DNA from: Microbacterium sp. M28
Lineage (GTDB): Bacteria > Actinomycetota > Actinomycetes > Actinomycetales > Microbacteriaceae
NCBI RefSeq assembly: GCF_025836995.1
Contig: NZ_CP107546.1
Location: 1,798,001-1,862,000, forward strand
Length of the DNA stretch: 64,000 bases
Direction of reading: 5' to 3'
The position numbers were made by a program, and so were the translations under genes. Shown here one piece after another: positions 9,496 to 42,273 of this stretch. The number at the start of each line of letters is the position of its first letter. The stretch's first letter is position 1. The notes under the pieces are model-generated. The model saw only the letters and a list, made by a program, of their open reading frames with translations. It was not told the origin of the DNA and ran no database searches.

Positions 9496-10137
9496 ATGCG
9501 CAGAATGCACAACCGCCCGTGCGCAGCCGGGCTCATCCTGATCGGAATGCTCACTGTCAGCGCGTGCGTCGCCGCACCGGCTTCCCCGGCTCCGACGAGT
9601 TCGGACGCGCCGGCTGGCCATGGCTCGCATCTGCCGGCGCCGCCGGATGCCGCGGTCATCGCCACGGGCACTGTGATGGACGTCGACGGCGCGGTCGAAC
9701 TCTGCCTCGGCCCGATCGCGGAGTCGTATCCGCCGCAGTGCTCCGGCATCCCCATGTCGGGATGGACCTGGGATGGCGTGGACGGCAGTGAGCAGGTCGA
9801 CCGGGTGCGATGGGGAGCCTATGCCGTGACAGGACAGTACGACGGCACGATCTTCGCCGTGACGGAGACGCCCGTCCTGCTCGCGCTCTACGATTCGCTC
9901 CCGCACGACGAGCAACCCGTCGCCGGGTTGAAGACGACGGACGAGCTGACACGGATCCAGGGCGACATCGCGTCGTTGTTCGCGAACGCACCCGGCACGT
10001 TGCTGGGATCCGTCCCGATCGACGGCGTGCTCGTCGTCGACGTCGTCTGGGACGACGGCACGCTGCAGCAGGCGGCCGATGAGCGATACGGAGCGGATGC
10101 CGTGGTCATCCGCCCCGCACTGCGCGAAGTCGAGTGA
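9496..10137 (+). CDS. Putative secreted lipoprotein, unknown function
   Basis: It has 213 residues from the ATG at 9496 (upstream in-frame starts at 9439 and 9478 exist but would put charged sequence before the signal peptide). A type II signal peptide ends in LTVSAC, with Cys24 as the probable lipidated residue, followed by a Ser/Pro/Ala-rich linker. The mature part has a paired-Cys segment (VELCLGPIAESYPPQCSGIP) and VDRVRWGAYAVTGQYDGT, a pattern seen in uncharacterised actinobacterial lipoproteins. It is divergent from leuA and convergent, two bases apart, with the secreted-protein gene at 10140. I do not recognise a function. Confidence 0.75.
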   Translation: MRRMHNRPCAAGLILIGMLTVSACVAAPASPAPTSSDAPAGHGSHLPAPPDAAVIATGTVMDVDGAVELCLGPIAESYPPQCSGIPMSGWTWDGVDGSEQVDRVRWGAYAVTGQYDGTIFAVTETPVLLALYDSLPHDEQPVAGLKTTDELTRIQGDIASLFANAPGTLLGSVPIDGVLVVDVVWDDGTLQQAADERYGADAVVIRPALREVE

Positions 10138-12181: not shown

Positions 12182-13035
12182 TCCTTCGCGACCTTGACGT
12201 GCAGCCCGAGGAACACCCTCGTGCCCAGCAGGTCCTGGATCCCGGCGCGCGAGCGTGCACCCACATCCTTCAGGCGCGAACCCTTGTGCCCGATGATGAT
12301 GGCCTTCTGGCTGTCGCGCTCGACGACGATCTGCGCATGCACGTCCGTCAGGTCGCTGTTCTCGCGCGGCGCGATGTCCTCCACCACCACGGCGATCGAG
12401 TGCGGCAGCTCGTCGCGGACGCCTTCCAGTGCCGCCTCGCGGATGATCTCCGCGATGCGGTCGGACGTCGACTCGTCGGTCGTGACGCCCTCGGGGTAGA
12501 GCGCCGGGCCTTCCGGCATGAGCTGCAGGATCTCGTCCGACAGCACGTCGAGCTGCTCACGGGTGAAGGCGGAGAGCGGGATGACGGCCGCCCAGTCCTC
12601 GCGCAGCGCGTCCACCTCGATGAGACGTTCCGTGATCTCGTCGCGGCCTGCCGCATCCGTCTTCGTCACGATCGCGATCTTCTTCGCACGCGGATAGCCG
12701 TCGAGCGAGGCAGCGATGCGCCGATCGCCTGGCCCGACCTTCTCGGTCGCCGGCACGCAGAAGCCGATCACATCGACATCGCCGAGCACCTGCTCGACCA
12801 GGTCGTTGAGCCGCTCGCCGAGGAGGGTGCGCGGCTTGTGGATGCCGGGGGTGTCGACGATCACCAGCTGGCCGTCCGGACGATTGAGGATGCCGCGGAT
12901 CGCGCGCCGCGTCGTCTGAGGCTTCTCGCTCGTGATGGCGATCTTCTCTCCGACCAGCGCGTTGGTGAGCGTGGACTTGCCCACGTTCGGGCGCCCGACG
13001 AAGGTCGCGAACCCGCTTCGAGAGTTGTCAGTCAT
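12139..13035 (-). CDS. era: GTPase Era
   Basis: Ribosome-assembly GTPase that binds 16S rRNA. G1 is GRPNVGKSTLTN, switch II is VDTPGIHKPR and G4 is TKTD. A C-terminal KH domain carries IIIGHKGSRLKDVGARSR. It has 298 residues from the ATG at 13035; this start is chosen over the ATG at 13050 because AAGGAG lies at ideal spacing before it. The start overlaps the upstream CBS-domain gene by eight bases. The run phoH-ybeY-CBS-era is classical actinobacterial order. Confidence 0.96.
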   Translation of the reverse strand: MTDNSRSGFATFVGRPNVGKSTLTNALVGEKIAITSEKPQTTRRAIRGILNRPDGQLVIVDTPGIHKPRTLLGERLNDLVEQVLGDVDVIGFCVPATEKVGPGDRRIAASLDGYPRAKKIAIVTKTDAAGRDEITERLIEVDALREDWAAVIPLSAFTREQLDVLSDEILQLMPEGPALYPEGVTTDESTSDRIAEIIREAALEGVRDELPHSIAVVVEDIAPRENSDLTDVHAQIVVERDSQKAIIIGHKGSRLKDVGARSRAGIQDLLGTRVFLGLHVKVAKEWQRDPKQLGRLGF

Positions 13036-14305
13036 CGTTGTCTCCTTCATCGGGTTCTGCAGACCGTTCCACGAACACGGTCGCGATGCCGCGTCCGCGC
13101 CCTCGCGACGCGCCGCCGGTCAGCACGAGGCCGTCGAGGGCGGCCGTCGCTCCCGGCTGCGGGATCTGACCGAGAGCTTTGCCGAGCAGTCCGCCGATCG
13201 AGTCGACATCGTCGTCCTCGAGCTCGATGCCGAACAGATCGCCGACGTCCTCGAGAGGAAGGCGGGCGCTCACACGATACCGCCCATCGCCGAGCGGAAC
13301 GACCTCGGCCGGCCCGTGGTCGTACTCGTCAGCGATCTCGCCGACGAGCTCCTCGATGAGATCCTCGAGGGTCACGAGGCCCGAGATGCCGCCGTGCTCG
13401 TCGATGACGATGCAGACGTGCACGGCTTCGCGCTTCATCTTCTGCAGCAGCGTCTCGGCGCGCATCGACTCGGGGACGAACGTCGCCGGTCTGGCGATCG
13501 GGCGGACAGGGACCCCGCGCCATGCGTTCTCGTCGCGGTAGGCGAACTGGACGAGGTCCTTCAGATACAGCACGCCGACGACATCGTCCGCGTCGTCGTC
13601 GACGACGGGCATCCGCGAGACGCCGCGGCTGAGGAAGAGCTCCATCGCGTCGCTCGTCGTGGCCGCCGCGTCGACCGCGAGCATCTCGGTCCGTGGCACC
13701 ATGACCGCCCGGACGAACTGGTCTGTGAAATCGAACACCGAGTGGATGAGGTCGCGGTCGTCTTCCTCGATGAGATCGTTCGACGCCGCCTCGTCGACCA
13801 TGCTCAGCAGCTGGTCCTCGCTCGTGAACGAGCTGCGCCCCGCTCCCGGAGCGACGCGATTGCCGAGCGCGACGAGCCCCTGGGCGAGCGGTCCGAGGAT
13901 GATCCGCAGCCCGCGGACGATCGGCGCGCACGCGCGCAGCAGCCCCGGAGCCCGGTGCCTCCCGACCGAACGCGGACTCGCGCCGACCAGCACGAACGTG
14001 ATGCCGGTCATGAGGACGGCAGCGGCGAGCATGGCCCACCAGATGCTGCCGATGATGTTCGTGAACGCGACGGTGACGAGCACGGCGGCGGTCGTCTCCG
14101 CCAGGACTCGGATGAACGCGACGGCATTCACGTGGACGTCGGGGTCCTCGGCGATCAGACGCAGCGAAGGCGCGTTGCGGCCCTGTTCACCGAGTTCCTC
14201 GAGATCCGATCGCGAGGTGACGCCGAACGCCGCGTCGATCGCCGACATGAGGCCGCCGAACGCCACCAGGAGAACGGCGGCGATCAGCAGCAGGGTCTCG
14301 GTCAT
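13028..14305 (-). CDS. HlyC/CorC-family membrane protein (DUF21, tandem CBS, CorC_HlyC domain)
   Basis: 425 residues. An N-terminal DUF21 domain has three to four hydrophobic segments ([20 protein letters not shown], then [19 protein letters not shown]). Two CBS motifs follow ([10 protein letters not shown] ... [20 protein letters not shown], then [15 protein letters not shown] ... [12 protein letters not shown]), and a C-terminal CorC_HlyC transporter-associated domain ([18 protein letters not shown]). Homologues are linked to Mg/Co efflux (family knowledge). It overlaps ybeY by four bases and era by eight, so it is co-translated. Confidence 0.92.
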
Positions 14306-33712: not shown

Positions 33713-36043
33713 CTACCCGGGGCCACCGACCTCGGCCGGTGCGTCACCGGCATCCGAACGCTCCGACCAGACGACCAGTTCGTCGTCGCGCCTGCCCACC
33801 AGGACGCGCCCCTGCAGGTCGGTGCGCAGCGTGATCGCTCCAGCGGCCGCGACGAGGTCCAGAGTCTCCTCCCGTGGATGCCCGTAGTCGTTGTCGATCC
33901 CGACGTTCACGATCGCGATGGCAGGATCCAGGAGCGCGTACAGTCCGGCATCCTGATCCGCGCTGCCGTGGTGGGCGACCTTGACCACCGGATACGGCGG
34001 GCGGAGCATGCCCGATGCGGCGAGCAGCCGTTGCGGTGTCGCCGAGAGATCGCCGAGGAACAGCGACCGCGGCAGGTCCGCGCCCTCGAACTCCATCACG
34101 ACGCTCGCATCGTTGCCGGACGGGAACGCCGCCTGCTGCGCCCGCGGCCAGAGCACCCGCCACTGAGCCGTACCGAGCTGCCCGCTCTGCCCTACCGATG
34201 CCTCGACCAGGGCTGCACCGCCGGTCATGAGCTCGCTCAGCAGGTGCCTGTCCTCCGGCTCGCCTACGGGTCCGTGCAGCACCGTGTCGACGCGCCCGAT
34301 CAGCGCAGCAGCGCCCCCGGCATGATCGAGATCGAAGTGCGTCAGGACGAGCAGGTCGACGTGGTCGACGCCGAGGGAGCCGAGGCACCGCGACAGCGGT
34401 TCGGGTTCGGGCCCGGTGTCGATCACGGCGATGCGCGCGTCCGAGCGGATGACCAGTGCGTCGCCCTGACCCACATCGCACGCCGCGATGGACCAGTGCT
34501 CAGGAACCGCGACGACCGCGAGCGGTCCGTCCAGCACGACTCGGGCGCCGCCCAGCGCCAGGGCGATGACGAGCACGGCGCTCGCGGAGCGCAGCAGGCT
34601 GCGAGGCGGCACCGAGCCAGATCGACCACGGCACAGCACGATCGCGCAGGCCGCGCTGAGCACGAGGACGATGGCCGACGTCGCCAGGCCAGGGACCACG
34701 AGCAGTTCGGCTCCGGGGATCTGTGCGGTGGTGGTGGCCGTCGTCGCGATCCACGCGGCGGGGAGCCAGGCGGCCGCAGCCAAGGCATCAGCGACAGCAG
34801 GAACCGGTGCGGCCAGGCACGCGAGCAGTCCGACGACCGTGGCGATCGGTGCGGCCGGCGCGGCGAGCATGTTCGCCGCGACGCCGATCAGTGACTGCTG
34901 CTCGGCGAACAGCGCGATGATCGGCCCGCACACCAGTTGTGCCGCGATCGGGACCGCGATGCCGAGCGCCAGGACCTGCGGCAGCCAGCGTCCCAGCCCT
35001 CGCGCGATCGACGGCGCGAGCAGGATGAGCGCTCCTGTCGCCGCCGCCGACAGGGCGAAACCCGGCGTCGCGGCGAGCCATGGATCGGCGACGAGGATGC
35101 CGACGATCGCGAGGCACAGCACGCTCACACCGGCCGTGGGCTTCCCCAGCAGGATGGACAGCATGCCCAGCGCCGCCATCGTTCCCGCCCGGATCACACT
35201 CGGCTCCGGAGTCACGAGGACCACGAAGGACGCCAGCGCGCCCAGTGCCACGAGCACACGCAGGCGGCGCCCACCACCGCACAGCGCGACGAGCCAGAAC
35301 GCCGCCGCCACGACGATCGCGCAGTTCGCGCCGCTGACAGCGGTCAGGTGCGAGAGACCGCTGGTGAGCATGGCATCGTTCAGCTCGGCGGACACCGCGG
35401 TCGTGTCGCCCACGGCGAGCCCCGGCAGCAGGGCGGCGCCGGGCTCTGGGAGCCGTGCAGCGCGTTCCACGAACTCGGCCCGGGTCGTTGCGGCGACGGC
35501 GAAGAGGCCGCGAGCAGGCGCGGGCACCTCGGCCGAGCTCGCGAACACCACGAGAGCGGCGCGCTCGGACGGCTCGCTGGCCATCACCTGCCCGAGCACC
35601 CGTATCCGCGCGCCGAGATCGGCGCCGTCCAGCCCGTCGATGCCGACTCGCACCGGGATCGACAGAGCGCGCTCCGATCCGGTCGGCCCGATCAGCACGG
35701 TCTGCGCGTCGAACCAGCTGCGCCCGTCCGATCCGATCGTGCTCGAAGACGTGACCTCCGCCTCCACACTGACGATCCGGCCGTCGAGCGCGGCCGCATC
35801 CGCGCGCACCGGCGCGGCGAGAGCGCAGGTCAACGCGACCGCCGCGGCGCCGGCACAGGCCAGAGCCGCCAGTGGCGCCCACCCATGCCGATACGACTTC
35901 CACGCCACCACGACGAGTACCGTGCCGACGACAAACGCGCCTGCCACCAACCACCAGCCTGCTGCGGGCAGGAACGCGCACGTGAGCGCGACCGCCCATG
36001 CCGCAGCAGCCACGGGTACGAGGCGCAGGTCGCGCCGGCTCAC
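33713..36043 (-). CDS. comEC: ComEC/Rec2-family competence / DNA channel protein
   Basis: 776 residues from the GTG at 36043. An N-terminal hydrophobic and OB-like part is followed by the competence domain with SGLSHLTAVSGANCAIVVAA, then multiple membrane helices. The C-terminal metallo-beta-lactamase domain has VGQGDALVIRSDARIAVIDT, LLVLTHFDLDHAGGAAAL and VVKVAHHGSADQ. In transformable bacteria ComEC passes single-stranded DNA across the membrane. Its usual operon partner comEA is not adjacent but about 5.5 kb away; a 22-codon comEA remnant overlaps this start by GTGA, so the original coupling signal survives. Whether the gene is expressed from the duplicated comEA promoter region is inference. 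Confidence 0.93.
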   Translation of the reverse strand: MSRRDLRLVPVAAAAWAVALTCAFLPAAGWWLVAGAFVVGTVLVVVAWKSYRHGWAPLAALACAGAAAVALTCALAAPVRADAAALDGRIVSVEAEVTSSSTIGSDGRSWFDAQTVLIGPTGSERALSIPVRVGIDGLDGADLGARIRVLGQVMASEPSERAALVVFASSAEVPAPARGLFAVAATTRAEFVERAARLPEPGAALLPGLAVGDTTAVSAELNDAMLTSGLSHLTAVSGANCAIVVAAAFWLVALCGGGRRLRVLVALGALASFVVLVTPEPSVIRAGTMAALGMLSILLGKPTAGVSVLCLAIVGILVADPWLAATPGFALSAAATGALILLAPSIARGLGRWLPQVLALGIAVPIAAQLVCGPIIALFAEQQSLIGVAANMLAAPAAPIATVVGLLACLAAPVPAVADALAAAAWLPAAWIATTATTTAQIPGAELLVVPGLATSAIVLVLSAACAIVLCRGRSGSVPPRSLLRSASAVLVIALALGGARVVLDGPLAVVAVPEHWSIAACDVGQGDALVIRSDARIAVIDTGPEPEPLSRCLGSLGVDHVDLLVLTHFDLDHAGGAAALIGRVDTVLHGPVGEPEDRHLLSELMTGGAALVEASVGQSGQLGTAQWRVLWPRAQQAAFPSGNDASVVMEFEGADLPRSLFLGDLSATPQRLLAASGMLRPPYPVVKVAHHGSADQDAGLYALLDPAIAIVNVGIDNDYGHPREETLDLVAAAGAITLRTDLQGRVLVGRRDDELVVWSERSDAGDAPAEVGGPG

Positions 36044-36108
36044 ACCCGCACCCGCGACCTCGCCGCTACCCGCGGGCGCGGTTGGGGCGTCTCGGAATCG
36101 GCTGGCAC
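36040..36108 (-). pseudogene. Internally deleted comEA remnant before comEC
   Basis: A 22-codon frame beginning VPADSETPQPRPR, nearly the same as the intact ComEA N-terminus at 42177 (MPAESETPQPRPR), and ending in RVRV with the same GTGCGGGTGTGAG end as intact comEA (KVRV). The roughly 180 codons between are missing. Its TGA overlaps the comEC GTG start. It therefore marks the original comEA position and keeps translational coupling. Confidence 0.8.
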
Positions 36109-36204
36109 TCCGCCACGGTACGCACACGTTCGGGCCAGCGATCCGGCGATTCCGGCATCCGTGGACAGCTCCAGGGATGCCGGGAGCAGTGCAGGACGAG
36201 TGGT
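36071..36204. repeat. Direct repeat, copy A (comEC side of the island)
   Basis: This 134-bp segment aligns without gaps to 42140-42273 (constant offset 6069) at roughly 80% identity counted by eye. It covers the start of the comEA remnant, its upstream region, a hairpin (CCGGCATCC ... GGATGCCGG) and ends at GTGCAGGACGAGTGGT. Both copies have the same orientation and bound the accessory genes between them. Confidence 0.9.
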
Positions 36205-36739
36205 TCGGGTAACGCTGCTCTCCTGATCCGACGGAAACTTCTGCGTCAGCGGTCGCCCGTCTCGACACGTCGATTCAGCATCGGAGCGATGCTGAATCAT
36301 GCCGTGAAGGCGAAGAACTTCGTTCGCTTTCGCTGGCGTCTCCCTCGCCGTGGCCACGCTCGCAGGGCGCACACAACCAGCCCGCCAGTACGCCAGCGCT
36401 TCAAGTGGCAGATCCGACGCCGACGCCCGTACGAGTCCCGCACGGCAGCCGAGCGCGACGCCGACGAACATGACTCCATCGCGTACCTCCCGACCACCAT
36501 CGCCGCAGCAGCCGGCGGATTCGTCGCGAGCATCAGGGCCGAACTGCTGGAGGTGCCGCAGCTCGTCGCCGCCTTCGGGGACGCGATAGGCGCGCACCAG
36601 CGGCGCGGCCGCTTGCCGATCCGCCTCCCGGTGGCATCGATCGCGCTCACCGCGCAGGAGACAACTTCGCCGCAACTGGCGCTCACTGTGGGAATGGCAC
36701 CTGGGCGAGTTTCCTCAGCGGGACTGACGTACCGGCTTC
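36205..36739. other. Gene-poor stretch inside the island
   Basis: No reading frame here is convincing on either strand. Frames on the minus strand are Arg/Cys-rich, and the plus-strand frame through 36270-36750 (with VASIRAELLEVPQLVAAFGD) matches no family I know. It probably holds degenerate sequence and the 5' flank of copy A. Confidence 0.5.
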
Positions 36740-38038
36740 TCACTGCTTCGTGAGGAAGTCCTTATGCACCCAGCCGGTCTTTCCGGCGTAAGTGACCTTG
36801 CGCCAGGAACCGTTCGACGCCAGGATCTGGCCGACGCTCTTGCCCTTGGGGATCGTCAGCAGTGGCTTCTGGCTCGTCGATGCCGTGGGCCTCAGGCTCA
36901 GCGCCGCCGTGGTCTTGTAGGTGGCCGGCTGCTGGGCAGGCGCGGGTTTCGGCGCCGGGGACGTCGCGGTCGACTTCGCGAGATAGTCGCTCTGCACCCA
37001 GCCGGTCTTCCCGGCGTAGGCGACCTTGCGCCACGAACCACTCGACGCGAGGATCTGGCCCACGTCCTTGCCCTTCGGGATCGTCAGCAGTGGCTTCTGG
37101 CTCGTCGATGCCGTGGGCCGCAGGTTCAACGCCGCCGTTGTCTTGTACGTCACCTTGGACGGAACCGGCGCAGGCGCCGGCGCCGGCGCCTGCGCCGGAG
37201 GCTTCGGCGTCGTGACGGCGGGGCGAGTCGGGCTGAGCAGCCAGTTCGCGATCCATCCGCTGCGTGCACCCGCCTTGACCGGCAGGAACGAGGTGGAGAC
37301 TTGGCCCGGTACCGCCGTGACCATGGTGCCGGCGGCGAGCTTCACGACGACGGCCGTTGAAGTCGATGCCCCTGCGCGCAGGTTCACCGCTCCGGTCGTG
37401 TAATACGTGCAGGTGCTGGGTGCCGTCTTGGCCGTGATCCGGGTAGCCTTCCCCGCCACGTCGATGCCGCGGCTCTTCAGCCAAGGGACTGGATCGAGCT
37501 GCTTGTACCCGCCCGACGCAGCGTGCTCCCAGAGCTCCAGGTGCAGATGCGGGCCGTTGGTGTTTCCGCTCATGCCCACCGAGCTGATCCGCTGCCCGGC
37601 CTTGACGATTTGACCGACCTTCACGTGGGTCGTCGCCGACCAGACATGCAGGTACTTCGTCGTGTACGTGGTCTTGCCAACGGTGTGACGGATGTCGATG
37701 TGCCCGGCGACCGAGCTGGTTCCCGATACGGTCGCCGTGACGACGCCTGCGGCGACGGCATAGATCGGCGAACCGTTCTTGGTCGCGAGGTCGACGCCGC
37801 CGTGCGACGTGGTGGCTCCTGGCATCGGCATGCAGCGCGGACCCTGCCACGCGGAAACGTCGTATGACTTCGACGCGAGAGGCAACACGAAGGTCGTCGC
37901 CGCGGGTACGGCAGTCTGTATCCCAGAGACGGGCGCAGCGACAGGCACAGCAGCGGCTGCGGCGGCCGGGGATAGACCTGCGGAGCCCAGCGCGATCGCC
38001 GTCGCAAGAGCCAGTGCATGACGGGATCTGAGTTTCAT
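36740..38038 (-). CDS. Secreted M23-family peptidase with three bacterial SH3 domains
   Basis: 432 residues. A Sec signal peptide (MKLRSRHALALATAIALGSA) is followed by an M23 domain with zinc ligands in TTSHGGVDLAT and NGPHLHLELWEHA, then an SH3-like domain (GAVNLRAGASTSTAVVVKLA). A Pro/Ala-rich linker (PKPPAQAPAPAPAP) and two more SH3 domains of about 60 residues follow; these differ at only about eight positions, e.g. both contain LRPTASTSQKPLLTIPKGK. It is probably a cell-wall endopeptidase anchored by its SH3 domains. The ATG at 38038 avoids an unlikely N-terminal extension. The nearly identical repeats suggest recent internal duplication. Confidence 0.9.
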   Translation of the reverse strand: MKLRSRHALALATAIALGSAGLSPAAAAAAVPVAAPVSGIQTAVPAATTFVLPLASKSYDVSAWQGPRCMPMPGATTSHGGVDLATKNGSPIYAVAAGVVTATVSGTSSVAGHIDIRHTVGKTTYTTKYLHVWSATTHVKVGQIVKAGQRISSVGMSGNTNGPHLHLELWEHAASGGYKQLDPVPWLKSRGIDVAGKATRITAKTAPSTCTYYTTGAVNLRAGASTSTAVVVKLAAGTMVTAVPGQVSTSFLPVKAGARSGWIANWLLSPTRPAVTTPKPPAQAPAPAPAPVPSKVTYKTTAALNLRPTASTSQKPLLTIPKGKDVGQILASSGSWRKVAYAGKTGWVQSDYLAKSTATSPAPKPAPAQQPATYKTTAALSLRPTASTSQKPLLTIPKGKSVGQILASNGSWRKVTYAGKTGWVHKDFLTKQ

Positions 38039-38244
38039 GATTCTCCGGTCAGAGAGGGATCGCGCGGTGGGGTGCGCAGCGTTCACGACATTACTGGTGT
38101 GGCCGCATTCACCGCCAGTGACGAGTGGAAACGGCTCATCCACTCGTTTTCGAGCGCCCGGGTTGTTGAACTCGTGCTCAGCCCCATCTCACTTCAAGGG
38201 GTGTGCTTCTCACCGCCGAAATTCACCATTGTCCGCGCTATCGG
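38039..38244. other. Low-GC spacer upstream of the peptidase gene
   Basis: About 200 bases of visibly lower GC content than the backbone between the M23 gene and the IS3 remnant. No gene is supported; it should contain the M23 promoter. No clear terminal inverted repeat was found for the IS fragment. Confidence 0.4.
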
Positions 38245-38538
38245 AGCCCAGCCCGTTTTTTCCGGCGTTGAGAGCGAATCGGCTCGGTTAGGGCGCTCAG
38301 AACCGCCTGTTTCGCCGAGGCGCAGGGATCTGATCTGCGGCAAGGTCGAGGACCAGCGGGAACATCATTTGGGGAGTGACGCCTGCGACAGATCGGCGGC
38401 CGCTCTCCGCAGACTCTCGTTCTCTTGCTCGAGCAGTCGGATGCGTTTCTTCGCTTCACGCAGCTCGGCCGTGTCGGCCTGGGTCACACCGGGTTTCATG
38501 CCGTCGTCGACGTCCTCGATCTTCGACCACTGTTGCAG
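38245..38538 (-). pseudogene. IS3-family transposase remnant (OrfA C-terminus and frameshifted OrfB start)
   Basis: Minus-strand codons from 38538 to 38365 read LQQWSKIEDVDDGMKPGVTQ, AELREAKKRIRLLEQENESL, RRAAADLSQASLPK: the C-terminal half of an IS3-type OrfA including its leucine-zipper-like helix. OrfB begins in overlap at 38368 or 38365 with MFPLVLDLAADQIP, as in IS3 elements, then loses frame; traces such as SAKQA continue in another frame to about 38245. The OrfA helix-turn-helix half and nearly all of OrfB, with the DDE domain, are gone. It cannot transpose. Confidence 0.85.
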
Positions 38539-38665
38539 GTACCGCTCGGAGACGTCGGGCATGTTGACCATCCTCCGCGAGAACCGGAATCCGCACAGAT
38601 CAAGAATCAACCAAACCGACTGCAGTCCCTAACGTCGCGCGTGGTTCTCCGATCACACCACGAAA

Positions 38666-38861
38666 TCAGATTCGCCAAAGCCATCCGTCCAGGGCGGTCA
38701 ACAGGCCGATCGCGATGAAACCGATGGGAACGACGACCCCAGCGAATCGCTCGCATAAGCGCTCGCCGAAAAACCAAGAGCAGGAGTCCGAAGACCATGG
38801 TTGCCACTCCGACGACAACTTCCGCGTCCTCCAGATCCGCCATCGCCATGTGATCCCGCAC
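38666..38861 (-). pseudogene. Broken small two-helix membrane protein gene
   Basis: The first frame (about 38861-38720) encodes MADLEDAEVVVGVATMVFGL and LLLVFRRALMRAIRW, one transmembrane helix. In that frame the sequence then turns into Arg-rich filler. One frame away it continues as VVVPIGFIAIGLLTALDGWL, a second helix, ending WRI at 38666. The two parts together resemble small actinobacterial two-helix membrane proteins, so a single frameshift near 38720-38725 is likely. The start could be any of three close ATGs (38861, 38849, 38843). Confidence 0.5.
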
Positions 38862-39100
38862 GAAATTGGGGTTCTAAAGTCTGCCTCGAAGGTGAGCTAC
38901 TACCCGACAGCCCCGCTGACTGATCCACGAGCTAGAAGAGCTCGAAAGCGGCGCCGTCGCGTTCTTCGCGCACTCGCGCTGGCCGGTCCGATTCTTCGAG
39001 CATCGAGGGAAGCGCACGATTCATCGGTCCGCATCTGGACCTGGATAGCGACGTCCGATTTCCGCCGGAACTGGAGGCTCGTCACTGATGGACTCGAACC

Positions 39101-40345
39101 ATGAGATCATCCCGCCGTGCGCCGCTCCCGCGCACGTTCACGCGCATCGCATGGTCGAGCGTGACCACCCAGATGGCAGAGCAGATCGCGCTGGTCGCTG
39201 TGCCCCTCGCCGCCGTTCTCCTGCTCGGCGCCGGAGCAACGGAGACGGCACTGCTGCAGGTCGCGCAGACGCTCCCGTTCCTCGTCCTCGCACTCCCATT
39301 CGGGCTCATCATCGATCGCACGTCCCCGCGGCGAGTCCTCCTCGCCTCGGAGCTTCTGCGCATGATCACGCTGGGCAGCATCGTCGTGTTGATCGCATTC
39401 GATGCTCTCTCCCTCGGCGCGCTCCTCGCCCTCGGCCTCATCGGAGCGATCGGCACCGTGGGCGTCAGCGTCGCGGTCCCCTCCGCGGTCCCCCGGCTCG
39501 TGACGTCCGAGCGCCTGATGGACGCCAACCGATGGCTAGAGCTCGGACGAAGCGCCGCCTTCATCTCCGGCCCGATCCTCGCCGGCGCCATCGTCTCAGC
39601 GACCAACGCGAGCACCGCACTCGTTCTCGCCACCATCGCCTGCGCCGCCGCTGCCGCCTTGCTGATCCGACTCGACATCCCCCGAACCACAACGTCGCCC
39701 CACACATCGCCGTGGAGCGACGCCGCCCACGGCATCCGCTACGCGCTGGGACATCAGCTGCTCCGACCGATGATCCTCACCTCGACCGTCTTCAACATCG
39801 GCTGGTTTCTCATCCAATCCGTCTTCGTCGTCTACGCACTCGAACACCTGACGATGACACCCACCACGGTCGGAATCACCCTGGGCGCCTACGGAGCCGG
39901 AATGGTCATCGGCGCCGCCCTCTCCGGCCCCCTGTCACGCCGCCTCCGGTTCGGCCTGCTGACCGTGCTCGGCCCGGCCGGCGGGTTCATCGCTGCCGCC
40001 CTGATGGTCGCCACCCTCTGGATCCCGGCCCCGGCTTTCGCGCTCGCGTCGTTCTTCCTCTTCGGTCTCGGGCCTGTCCTCTGGACGATATCCACCACCT
40101 CACTCCGCCAAGCCGTCACGCCCGCCGCGATGATCGGCCGGGTGTCTTCTCTGGTCGTGGTCTCCACGTATGGCGCCCGTCCGATCGGCGCCGGACTCGG
40201 CGTCGTCATAGCCGCAACGGTCGGAATGGCCTGGTGCATCGCCGCAGCGGTCGTCGTCTTCGCCCTGCAGCTGCTCGTCGTCCTGACATCCGCTCTCCCG
40301 TCGGTCCGAGAGCTCCCCTCCCTCGCGCAGCCTGCAGCTCGATAG
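39101..40345 (+). CDS. Major facilitator superfamily transporter, exporter type
   Basis: 414 residues with about 12 hydrophobic segments. Segment 1 is SSVTTQMAEQIALVAVPLAA. The MFS loop 2-3 motif appears as ALPFGLIIDRTSPRRVLLAS, and motif-like LMDANRWLELGRSAAFISGP lies in the middle, both typical of the MFS_3 / enterobactin-exporter-like and macrolide-efflux-like branch. The ATG at 39101 has no obvious ribosome-binding site. The P-loop gene follows 132 bases downstream on the same strand. Substrate unknown; drug efflux is a possibility only. Confidence 0.88.
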   Translation: MRSSRRAPLPRTFTRIAWSSVTTQMAEQIALVAVPLAAVLLLGAGATETALLQVAQTLPFLVLALPFGLIIDRTSPRRVLLASELLRMITLGSIVVLIAFDALSLGALLALGLIGAIGTVGVSVAVPSAVPRLVTSERLMDANRWLELGRSAAFISGPILAGAIVSATNASTALVLATIACAAAAALLIRLDIPRTTTSPHTSPWSDAAHGIRYALGHQLLRPMILTSTVFNIGWFLIQSVFVVYALEHLTMTPTTVGITLGAYGAGMVIGAALSGPLSRRLRFGLLTVLGPAGGFIAAALMVATLWIPAPAFALASFFLFGLGPVLWTISTTSLRQAVTPAAMIGRVSSLVVVSTYGARPIGAGLGVVIAATVGMAWCIAAAVVVFALQLLVVLTSALPSVRELPSLAQPAAR

Positions 40346-40477
40346 GCGGCCGTTCTGCACGCTCACGGAGGCGGCGGTCAAGAGCGCCGAACGTCTGCGT
40401 TGACCGCGCTCTACGTCTCGGACGCCGGGCCGGTGGCGGAACACTCGCCTGCGGAGATACGAGGTTACGCTCCACCC

Positions 40478-41557
40478 ATGCACCTTTTGCGACTCGCCGG
40501 AGCCCCTGGCGTCGGCAAATCCACAACGGCGTGGGCTGTCGCGAACAGACTCGCCGGCGCCGGCGTCGCCACGGGATACGTCGACATCGATCAGCTCGGC
40601 ATGTGCTATCCCGCACCCGACGACGACCCGGACCGATGGGCCCTCAAAGAACGCGCCCTCGCCGGCGTCGCTCGACAGTTCGCCCTCGCGGGAATCGACC
40701 GCCTGGTCGTCTCCGGAGTCGCGTGGCCCGACGACCCGCCGCCGCAGATCCCGGGGATCACCGTGCAGTCGCTCTGGTTGGACGCCACAGAGCAGACACG
40801 GCGCAGGCGCTTGACGATGCGGGGCGACACGGGTGAGCAGCTTCTTCAGTTCCTCTCCGCCGGCACCGCTGAGGCGGGGCGGGTGAATTCCGCCTGGGGG
40901 CGGATCGCCACGGACGGCCTTTCGGAAGCCGACGCCGTCGAGAAGGTTCTCGAGTTCGGGCAGCCGGCCGACCCGAATGCGGAATCCGACGCGGTGCAGC
41001 CGCATACCGGACCGGCCGCTCCCGCGACGGATCGGATGCTGTGGATCACCGGACCTCGCCTGGCGGGCGCATCGCGAATCGGCTGGGAGATCGTGAGCCG
41101 GGAATGGACGGAAGGCCGGCGTGCCGGCTTCATCGATCTCGCGCAACTGTCGTTCGCCTGGAACGTCGACAGCACGCTCGTGGGGTTGGCGAACCTCGCG
41201 CGACTGCAACGGGCGTTCCGTGAGGTCGGCACCGACCGGTTCGTCGTCGTCGCTCCGTTTGACGTCGAGCCCGCGGCGGTACGCGCCGCACTCCCGGCGT
41301 CGGACCTGTCATTCGTCCGGCTCGCGCCGTCCGCCTCCGATATCCGGAGGCATGCGCGGCTGCGCAGGAGCGGCGATGGTCCATCCCTCGCCGGCGACGA
41401 TGTCGCAGACGCCACCGAATCTGAGCTCGAGCAGATCCTCCTGGCCGCCGACTCGCAGTCGACTTTGCCCGAGCGCGAAGGCGAGCTCAGCGTCGACACG
41501 CGAGATCTCCCCCTCCAGGCCGCGGCAGAGGCTGTCAAACGCGCTGCCGGTTGGTGA
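40478..41557 (+). CDS. Tandem P-loop NTPase-like protein, second domain degenerate
   Basis: 359 residues from the ATG at 40478. Domain 1 (about 1-170) starts LLRLAGAPGVGKSTTAWAVA with an intact Walker A, then GYVDIDQLGMCYPAP and LWLDATEQTRRRRLTMRG, resembling small-molecule kinases. Domain 2 (about 186-359) repeats the layout, MLWITGPRLAGASRIGWEIV, GFIDLAQLSFAW, DRFVVVAPFDVEPAAVRAAL, but its Walker A lacks the Lys. It is thus probably an active kinase-like half fused to a pseudo-kinase half. It ends eight bases from the convergent comEA stop. The acceptor substrate is unknown; pairing with an exporter could suggest resistance or a regulatory role. Confidence 0.75.
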   Translation: MHLLRLAGAPGVGKSTTAWAVANRLAGAGVATGYVDIDQLGMCYPAPDDDPDRWALKERALAGVARQFALAGIDRLVVSGVAWPDDPPPQIPGITVQSLWLDATEQTRRRRLTMRGDTGEQLLQFLSAGTAEAGRVNSAWGRIATDGLSEADAVEKVLEFGQPADPNAESDAVQPHTGPAAPATDRMLWITGPRLAGASRIGWEIVSREWTEGRRAGFIDLAQLSFAWNVDSTLVGLANLARLQRAFREVGTDRFVVVAPFDVEPAAVRAALPASDLSFVRLAPSASDIRRHARLRRSGDGPSLAGDDVADATESELEQILLAADSQSTLPEREGELSVDTRDLPLQAAAEAVKRAAGW

Positions 41558-41565
41558 CCAGCGAC

Positions 41566-42177
41566 TCACACCCGCACCTTGTCCCGCAGACCTTCCAGCA
41601 GCTTCTCACCGATCCCGGGCACCGCGAGCAGATCGTCCACCGAAGCGAACCGGCCGTTCTCGTCCCTCCACTGGATGATCCGCTCCGCCAGAGCGGGTCC
41701 GATCCGCGGCAGCGTCTCCAGTGCGGCCTGATCTGCGGCATTGAGATCGATCACGCCGTCGCCGCTGGGCGCGGCAGCGGATCCGGCCCCCGGCGCCGGC
41801 GCCGCGCCGATCTGCGGCACCACGATCTGCTCACCGTCGGAAATCAGCCGCGCCAGGTTCACGGCCTGCAGATCAGCGTCCTCCAGCGTGCCGCCGGCCG
41901 CGGCCAACGCGTCCGCGACGCGCGTGCCCTGCGCCAGCAGGTACAGGCCAGGACGCGTCACCTGTCCGAGCACATGCACGTACACCTCGGCCGGTGCCAC
42001 GGTCGCGGTCCCGGCATCCGCGATGTCGACGACCTGCGACCCGGACGTCTGACCGCGCAGGATGCCCAGCCCCACGGCGGCGGAGAGCACGACGAGCCCG
42101 AGCACCACGGCGGCGCCGACGCCGAGCTTCAGCCGTGCGCGTGGGCGCGGCTGGGGTGTCTCGGATTCCGCTGGCAC
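41566..42177 (-). CDS. comEA: ComEA-type helix-hairpin-helix DNA-binding protein
   Basis: 203 residues from a GTG. One N-terminal membrane anchor (GVGAAVVLGLVVLSAAVGLG) precedes an SLBB-like domain (VYVHVLGQVTRPGLYLLAQG). The tail has two HhH motifs: LNAADQAALETLPRIGPALA and VDDLLAVPGIGEKLLEGLRD. It would bind incoming DNA outside the membrane and hand it to ComEC. Downstream comEC has been displaced; the convergent P-loop gene ends eight bases from this stop, so comEA is now presumably monocistronic. Confidence 0.92.
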   Translation of the reverse strand: MPAESETPQPRPRARLKLGVGAAVVLGLVVLSAAVGLGILRGQTSGSQVVDIADAGTATVAPAEVYVHVLGQVTRPGLYLLAQGTRVADALAAAGGTLEDADLQAVNLARLISDGEQIVVPQIGAAPAPGAGSAAAPSGDGVIDLNAADQAALETLPRIGPALAERIIQWRDENGRFASVDDLLAVPGIGEKLLEGLRDKVRV

Positions 42178-42273
42178 TCCGCCACGCTATGCACGCGAGC
42201 GCCGCCGGAACGCAGCGATCCCGGCATCCGTGGAGAGTTCGACGGATGCCGGGATCGGTGCAGGACGAGTGGT
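42140..42273. repeat. Direct repeat, copy B (comEA side of the island)
   Basis: The partner of 36071-36204 in the same orientation with no alignment gaps. It covers the first 13 codons of intact comEA, its whole upstream region and the leuS-comEA hairpin, stopping where leuS begins (homology ends at GTGCAGGACGAGTGGT). The mismatches are concentrated in the intergenic part, while the comEA start codons and hairpin arms are conserved. Confidence 0.9.
42216..42257 (-). terminator. Perfect 16-bp hairpin between leuS and comEA
   Basis: CGATCCCGGCATCCGT pairs with ACGGATGCCGGGATCG around a 10-base loop. It lies 18 bases after the leuS stop and 38 bases before the comEA start, so may terminate leuS transcription; it has no T-tract. 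A weaker form is kept in the other copy of the repeat near 36147-36188. Confidence 0.6.

What the first reader, a model, noticed from the sequence alone, without database searches (positions are those of the whole stretch)
36040..42273. The comEA-comEC operon is split by a 6-kb island bounded by direct repeats of the comEA 5' region
In actinobacteria comEA, comEC and holA are normally contiguous. Here comEA (41566-42177) and comEC (33713-36043) are separated by an M23 peptidase, an IS3 fragment, a broken membrane gene, an MFS exporter and a P-loop protein. Segments 36071-36204 and 42140-42273 align without a gap at roughly 80% identity and in the same orientation. The comEC-side copy carries a comEA start (VPADSETPQPRPR) joined to the comEA C-terminus (RVRV) and overlaps the comEC start by GTGA. 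The simplest reading is Campbell-type integration of a circle carrying a diverged comEA 5' end, or duplication followed by deletion of the second comEA body. Either way the promoter-proximal comEA sequence survives in front of comEC and may now drive it.
Basis: partly seen in the sequence, partly recalled or inferred. Interest (0 to 1): 0.75.

Follow-up and report, generated by a model that had tools for sequence, protein, structure and literature searches.

The report
Duplicated competence promoter rescues split operon
In this Microbacterium a 5.5-kb insert separates two DNA-uptake genes that are adjacent in most relatives; a second copy of the region in front of the first gene sits in front of the second, and it carries a predicted promoter that likely keeps the second gene switched on with the cell's other DNA-uptake genes, which share the same promoter signature.

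Summary
In detail: 36071-36204 and 42140-42273 match without gaps at 108/134 (80.6%), same orientation. comEA-comEC is contiguous in 69 of 93 taxa (one doubtful taxon dropped), so the split is derived; about ten independent splits are inferred. The copy at comEC is closer to the local comEA copy than to the comEA region of 121 relatives' loci, duplicates included, so a lineage-specific duplication followed by internal deletion fits better than a diverged foreign circle. Its content is the main result: a predicted leaderless promoter, CTGCAC-N19/20-TTSTSCAC-N40/41-TAnnnT-N6-RTG. A model built only from other species' comEA promoters finds it directly in front of the detached comEC in 23 of 23 other split loci, and in front of comEC in 0 of 36 contiguous loci searched. 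On the whole genome the model picks comEA, this copy, the Tad pilus ATPase, recA, comF and ssb among 15 sites with E<0.01. So the duplication likely keeps comEC inside a competence regulon whose cis-element I did not find described in the papers searched. Transcription, binding and the regulator are untested.

The parts
33713..36043 (-). comEC (DNA-uptake channel), detached from comEA
   Evidence: Pfam Competence and Lactamase_B
36040..36108 (-). 22-codon mini-ORF: comEA N-terminus joined to comEA C-terminal codons, stop overlaps comEC start (GTGA)
   Evidence: in the 12 shared codons 4 of 5 differing codons are synonymous
36071..36204 (-). copy A: duplicate of the comEA upstream region and first 12 codons
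   Evidence: 108/134 identical to 42140-42273; model R1 hit 36104-36199, E 3.5e-10
36189..36194 (-). copy A box 1, CTGCAC
36161..36168 (-). copy A box 2, CTGTCCAC, 20 nt from box 1
36115..36120 (-). copy A -10-like hexamer TACCGT, 6 nt before the mini-ORF GTG
36205..41565 (.). island cargo between comEA and copy A
   Evidence: its three main proteins have no tblastn match above 35% identity in the 61 of 80 named loci for which one search reported them
36740..38143 (-). island: M23 peptidase with SH3 repeats
   Evidence: Pfam
39101..40345 (+). island: MFS transporter
   Evidence: Pfam
40400..41557 (+). island: P-loop protein (start codon uncertain), ends 8 nt before the comEA stop
   Evidence: AAA hits below the curated cut-off
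41566..42177 (-). intact comEA
   Evidence: Pfam SLBB, HHH_3
42140..42273 (-). copy B: native comEA upstream region and first codons
   Evidence: model R1 hit 42173-42268, E 1.2e-11
42258..42263 (-). copy B box 1, CTGCAC
42230..42237 (-). copy B box 2, CTCTCCAC
42184..42189 (-). copy B -10-like hexamer TAGCGT, 6 nt before comEA GTG

Best explanation
The repeat in front of comEC is a second copy of the region upstream of comEA with its first codons; it carries a predicted leaderless competence promoter and likely drives comEC together with the cell's other DNA-uptake genes. Likely history: comEA with its upstream region was duplicated in this lineage, one copy lost its middle, and cargo genes came to lie between the copies. 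What was kept in front of comEC is the two-box promoter and a 22-codon leader whose stop overlaps the comEC start, so translation of comEC would still be coupled as it was behind comEA. Shown by calls: the repeat and its closeness to the local comEA copy, the shared architecture, its presence at other DNA-uptake genes of this genome, and its presence at detached comEC in the 23 other split loci examined. Inferred: transcription from copy A, a shared activator, competence control, and the order of events.
For: Copy A keeps box 1, the N20 spacing, the -10 position and the start codon position of copy B; 4 of 5 differing codons are synonymous. It is closest to the local copy B: 108/134 against at most 93/134 in 121 relatives' loci, duplicates included, and rank 1 of 83 distinct regions in a 125-nt comparison. 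Model R1, from 60 comEA promoters of other species with the window left out, finds in the whole genome comEA 1.2e-11, copy A 3.5e-10, tadA 2.1e-7, recA 7.4e-7, M23 3.9e-6, comF 6.7e-6 and ssb 8e-3; 15 of 59 listed sites have E<0.01. Exact two-box pattern with N20: 9 hits against 0 for the reversed pattern. R1 hits lie directly upstream of the detached comEC in 23 of 23 other split loci (20 with default filters; 3 only with filters off), and in front of comEC in 0 of 36 contiguous loci. 12 label changes on a 94-taxon tree with a contiguous root.
Against: No expression or binding data. A visible comEA-duplication origin holds only for the window and one other genome (PS02344, L088); in the other split genomes the detached promoter is too diverged to trace. 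In 9 of the 23 other split loci the R1 match stops short of the start codon, in 7 before the end of the -10, and L043 and L093 have about 10 nt more between box 2 and the -10. The 60 sequences behind R1 were chosen because they fit the two-box pattern. The whole-genome search scored 150 of 5448 first-look candidates, so its list is incomplete: two exact-pattern sites (L174, L177) are not in it. The yraN-comM-dprA-xerC operon here has only a weak site (5 bits), and several of the 15 sites precede genes with no known role in transformation. R1 E-values are roughly calibrated.
Confidence: 0.8

Rival explanations
1. Campbell-type integration: a circle carrying a diverged comEA 5' region from another species recombined into comEA and left the repeat at both ends of the island.
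For: Direct repeats at both ends, same orientation; a short comEA 3' end also at both ends; similar split loci elsewhere in the genus.
Against: Copy A is closer to local copy B than to the same region in 121 relatives' loci; no integrase or replicon domain in the eight island ORFs or pieces tested; the repeat stops at the leuS stop codon. No close relative was held (best full-length comEC identity about 64%), so an unsampled donor is not excluded.
Confidence: 0.12
2. Copy A is decaying debris with no function; comEC is read from a promoter in the island or not at all.
For: The comEA body is gone; two ORFs overlapping the stretch next to copy A have no Pfam hit; no expression data.
Against: Box 1, spacing, -10 position and start are kept while the spacer diverged; the same architecture lies in front of detached comEC in 23 of 23 other split loci over about ten inferred events, which debris would not repeat.
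Confidence: 0.07
3. The motif marks a general DNA-damage or replication regulon (for example DnaA or PafBC type), not competence.
For: recA, ssb and an O6-methylguanine methyltransferase are among the sites; box 2 resembles part of a DnaA box (recalled).
Against: [quoted passage not shown] the recalled PafBC motif lies about 8 nt from the -10, these boxes 40-41 nt away.
Confidence: 0.15

Closest known systems
ComK / sigma-X / CRP-S type competence regulons of Bacillus, Streptococcus and Haemophilus (recalled)
   Same: One cis-element in front of the DNA-uptake channel, pilus, comF, ssb and recA genes
   Different: Different sequence and spacing (two boxes about 26 nt apart start to start, 40-41 nt upstream of a leaderless -10); no regulator known; no ComK-cascade homologues were found in Micrococcus luteus (PMC4322843, passages read)
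comEA/EC promoter of Micrococcus luteus (PMC12849477 and PMC8467076, passages read)
   Same: Regulated promoter of the same operon in an actinobacterium; Flp (Tad) pili take part in uptake (PMC4322843)
   Different: No shared promoter motif or regulon appears in the passages read; the 2026 paper says that the upstream signals and regulatory nodes remain to be identified
Mobile-element disruption of competence genes (comK prophages and similar; recalled; PMC12637031 seen as a search listing only)
   Same: DNA inserted in a competence operon
   Different: Here both genes stay intact and the downstream gene has its own promoter copy; no integrase domain in the island ORFs tested

Membership tests
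competence regulon (shared cis-element) | the same promoter element precedes several known transformation genes of one genome | tested here: met
   comEA, comEC, tadA, comF, recA and ssb among 15 sites with E<0.01
competence regulon (shared cis-element) | element conserved at the same genes in relatives | tested here: met
   three relatives, 30 of 44 listed hits examined: comEA in 3 of 3, tadA in 2, M23 in 2, comF in 1, ssb in 1, yraN-comM-dprA in 1; not every gene in every genome, and recA was not among those assigned
competence regulon (shared cis-element) | genes induced together in the competent state | not testable with these tools
   needs RNA-seq
competence regulon (shared cis-element) | a dedicated regulator binds the element | not testable with these tools
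   regulator not identified
site-specific integrative element | integrase or recombinase gene in the island | tested here: not met
   no such domain in the seven island ORFs or the 65-aa piece; smaller ORFs were not tested
site-specific integrative element | short identical att direct repeat at both ends | tested here: inconclusive
   13 nt of the comEA 3' end at 36040 and 41566, but explained as well by a second comEA copy with an internal deletion
Campbell integration of a circle from another species | repeat copy closer to another species than to the local copy | tested here: not met
   108/134 local against at most 93/134 in 121 loci; no close species was held
PafBC-type DNA-damage promoter (recalled) | motif directly adjacent (about 8 nt) to the -10 | tested here: not met
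   boxes lie 40-41 nt upstream of the -10

The most novel reading that the evidence does not exclude
A previously undescribed competence regulon runs through actinobacteria of this order: one two-box leaderless promoter commands the Tad uptake pilus, comEA, comEC, comF, ssb, recA and the dprA operon, plus new candidates for the transformation machinery (DUF559 nuclease-like proteins, some with an AbiEi-type domain, an M23 cell-wall hydrolase, small unknown proteins). Selection to keep comEC inside it is so strong that each time an island splits the operon, comEC gets its own copy of the promoter.
Probability: 0.6. Interest if true: 0.9.

Novelty: new variant of a known kind. Interest (0 to 1): 0.78.

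Why it matters
How competence is controlled in actinobacteria is open (said so in passages of PMC12849477 and PMC4322843). A defined cis-element with nearly fixed spacing, found through a natural promoter duplication, gives bait for the unknown regulator, a gene list for the regulon and a simple reporter test. The repeated operon splits act as natural experiments: comEC carries this promoter in the 24 split genomes examined, the window included, and in none of the 36 contiguous loci searched.

Tried and rejected
Exact pattern with a wrong register: three hits, not followed. With one mismatch the N19 two-box pattern is noise (93 hits against 82 for the reversed pattern); of its 6 exact hits 4 were assigned and 2 look like chance. 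Foreign-circle origin: set aside on identity. A single origin of all splits: rejected on the tree (12 changes), though several nodes have low support and some changes may be reversals. L132 was labelled split by an automatic gap of about 290 nt that rests on an unaligned comEC N-terminus; I count it as doubtful. In one search the L024 row is invalid (comEA start mis-extracted) and was dropped, and L049 and L056 had no comEA in the locus. In one search five split genomes (L042, L052, L106, L032, L036) fell outside my -10 expression; their TAGGTT/TACGTT hexamers were read by eye. In one search, 30 of 44 hits had loci and were examined; 22 were assigned (two WXG100-like ones by eye) and 8 not, of which one was later placed at yraN-comM-dprA. 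In one search two proteins lacked their last 22 and 29 residues; given whole one still has no Pfam hit and the other a hit to REase_MTES_1575 below its cut-off. The control used 36 of the contiguous loci held, and many of its comEA sites trained the model. DnaA-box and PafBC readings were set aside on spacing (recalled motifs). Literature: seven searches and passages of three papers showed no such motif; only open-licence PMC papers were searched.
Full report
What was checked. The comEA-side copy begins right after the leuS stop and ends inside comEA codon 13. On the comEC side the comEA start runs, after a short new stretch, into the last codons of comEA, giving a 22-codon ORF whose stop overlaps the comEC start as GTGA. 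comEA, comEC, an M23 peptidase with SH3 repeats and an MFS transporter are confirmed by Pfam, a P-loop protein only weakly. The 'IS3 fragment' has no Pfam hit.

Is the split derived? Relatives were taken from 295 genomes of the same genus, ordered by comEC (best full-length identity about 64%, so no close relative is held), and 80 named loci were fetched, nearly all Microbacterium. A contig length shared between the two sets (392,560 bases, Microbacterium sp. Bi121) places the genus. In most relatives leuS, comEA and comEC are contiguous, with a comEA-comEC gap of -35 to 51 nt, often a GTGA or ATGA overlap. Inserts of 0.36 kb to more than 14 kb sit between comEA and comEC in 23 other distinct loci. 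In the 20 inserts compared with one another, window included, shared cargo genes occur only within single clades. On a tree of 94 deduplicated taxa (25 labelled split, one of them doubtful) parsimony needs 12 changes with a contiguous root, against a mean of 22.3 and a minimum of 17 in 300 label shuffles. Several nodes are weakly supported and some changes may be reversals, so I say about ten origins. The window stands alone among contiguous lineages.

Which copy is native, and where did the other come from? Copy A (comEC side) is 108/134 identical to copy B (comEA side), and at most 93/134 to the same region in 121 relatives' loci (some of them two records of one species); copy B is at most 97/134 to them. 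A second comparison over 125 nt gives 100 for the local pair, rank 1 of 83 distinct regions, next best 87. So copy A is a duplicate made in this lineage, as far as sampling goes. Microbacteriaceae bacterium PS02344 (L088) shows a second visible case: 94/125, rank 1, next best 84, and a comEA-like N-terminus (MPQPD..DV) fused in frame to comEC. In the other split genomes the promoter is too diverged to trace to comEA.

What the repeat contains. Aligned comEA upstream regions show a nearly rigid architecture: CTGCAC or CTCCAC, 19 or 20 nt, TTSTSCAC, 40-41 nt, a TAnnnT hexamer, 6 nt, then the start codon, as expected for a leaderless transcript. More distant members of the genus show looser forms. 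Copy A keeps box 1, the N20 spacing, the -10 position and the start; box 2 and the -10 each carry one change within the consensus. Of 12 shared codons 5 differ, 4 of them synonymously.

Model. R1 was built from 60 comEA promoters of other species that fit this pattern, with no sequence of this window. On the whole genome it lists 59 sites with E up to 10, after scoring 150 of 5448 first-look candidates; 15 have E<0.01. In order they precede comEA, copy A/comEC, tadA, recA, an M23 peptidase gene next to rpsB, comF, a 101-aa and a 148-aa unknown, two DUF559 proteins, a 329-aa protein, an O6-methylguanine methyltransferase, a 322-aa protein, an 85-aa protein and ssb. Within the 64-kb window only the two copies are listed. 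The exact two-box pattern with N20 gives 9 hits (comEA, copy A, tadA, ssb, a DUF559 gene, the M23 gene, a ThiF-like gene named by eye, a WXG100 gene, the 101-aa unknown) and none for the reversed pattern; with N19 it gives 6, among them comF and recA. The yraN-comM-dprA-xerC operon (Pfam) has a weak site here (box 1 intact, box 2 degenerate, 5 bits) and a better one directly upstream of yraN in relative G246 (17.9 bits). In three relatives 44 sites with E up to 0.05 were listed and 30 examined: comEA in 3 of 3, tadA in 2, M23 in 2, comF in 1, ssb in 1, DUF559-type or related proteins 8 times, and others; 8 were unassigned at that step, and recA was not among those assigned.

Split genomes. R1 hits lie directly upstream of the detached comEC in 20 of 23 loci with default filters, best 3e-14, weakest 0.0044, and in the remaining three only with filters off, 2e-5 to 7e-4. 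Nine of the 23 matches stop before the start codon and seven before the end of the -10. In 36 contiguous loci (457 kb) there are 36 comEA sites, two weak others and none in front of comEC; many of those comEA sites trained the model, so only the absence at comEC is informative. In 13 of 24 split genomes (window included) the promoter opens a mini-ORF of 8-28 codons that ends in an overlap with comEC; in 6 the new start is fused to comEC; 5 were outside the automatic rule.

Breadth. R1 finds a site upstream of comEA in 7 of 29 loci from other genera of the family and in 22 none. A relaxed score, loosened after seeing those, finds a related form (GTCCAC ... CCGTCCAC ... TAGCGT ... RTG and the like) in 8 of 29 loci drawn from the order, against 0 of 29 reversed controls.

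Reading. The simplest account is duplication of the comEA promoter region, internal deletion of the second comEA and cargo between the copies, with retention of what comEC needs: the promoter and a coupled leader. That the same layout recurs over about ten inferred splits argues for selection to keep comEC in a common regulon. That the regulon is competence is inferred from its members; [quoted passage not shown] PMC12849477 (passages) states that the upstream signals and regulatory nodes remain to be identified; PMC8467076 (passages) shows no such motif in the passages seen. Transcription, binding and the regulator are untested.

Noticed in passing
L105, L111, L126 (comEC match starts at residue 236-237) and L099 (residue 220), near locus position 10001; also L041: In several Microbacterium the comEC gene itself is interrupted near the conserved SGLSHLTAVSG/ANCAIV motif, with no comEA in the 10 kb upstream. 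Serine recombinase genes (Pfam Resolvase and Recombinase) lie upstream in L111 and L126; none was tested in L099 and L105. G002 (L041) has a broken first comEC with the same breakpoint and a second, full comEC with its own competence-type promoter.
   Followed up: partly
L144, L148, L174 (own genome) and eight sites in G095, G098, G246: Genes for DUF559 proteins, some with an AbiEi-type N-terminal domain, and proteins related to them repeatedly follow the competence-type promoter; a possible unrecognised part of DNA processing during uptake.
   Followed up: partly
L178 / L213:6878-7396: A 172-aa M23 peptidase gene, divergent from rpsB (named by eye) and convergent with xerC, carries the promoter in this genome and in two relatives; it may open the cell wall for the uptake pilus.
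   Followed up: partly
L044:9149-9242, 12484-12576 and 13776-13867: G087 (M. oxydans BEL4b) has three competence-type promoters in a row: at comEA, at a 54-codon comEC fragment and at the full comEC.
   Followed up: no
L055 and named loci L071, L087, L101, L121: The leuS-comEA gap also holds inserts in some relatives (about 0.9 to 10 kb).
   Followed up: no
36746-37201: Two tandem 228-nt repeats (80%) in the island M23 peptidase gene, in its SH3-repeat part.
   Followed up: no
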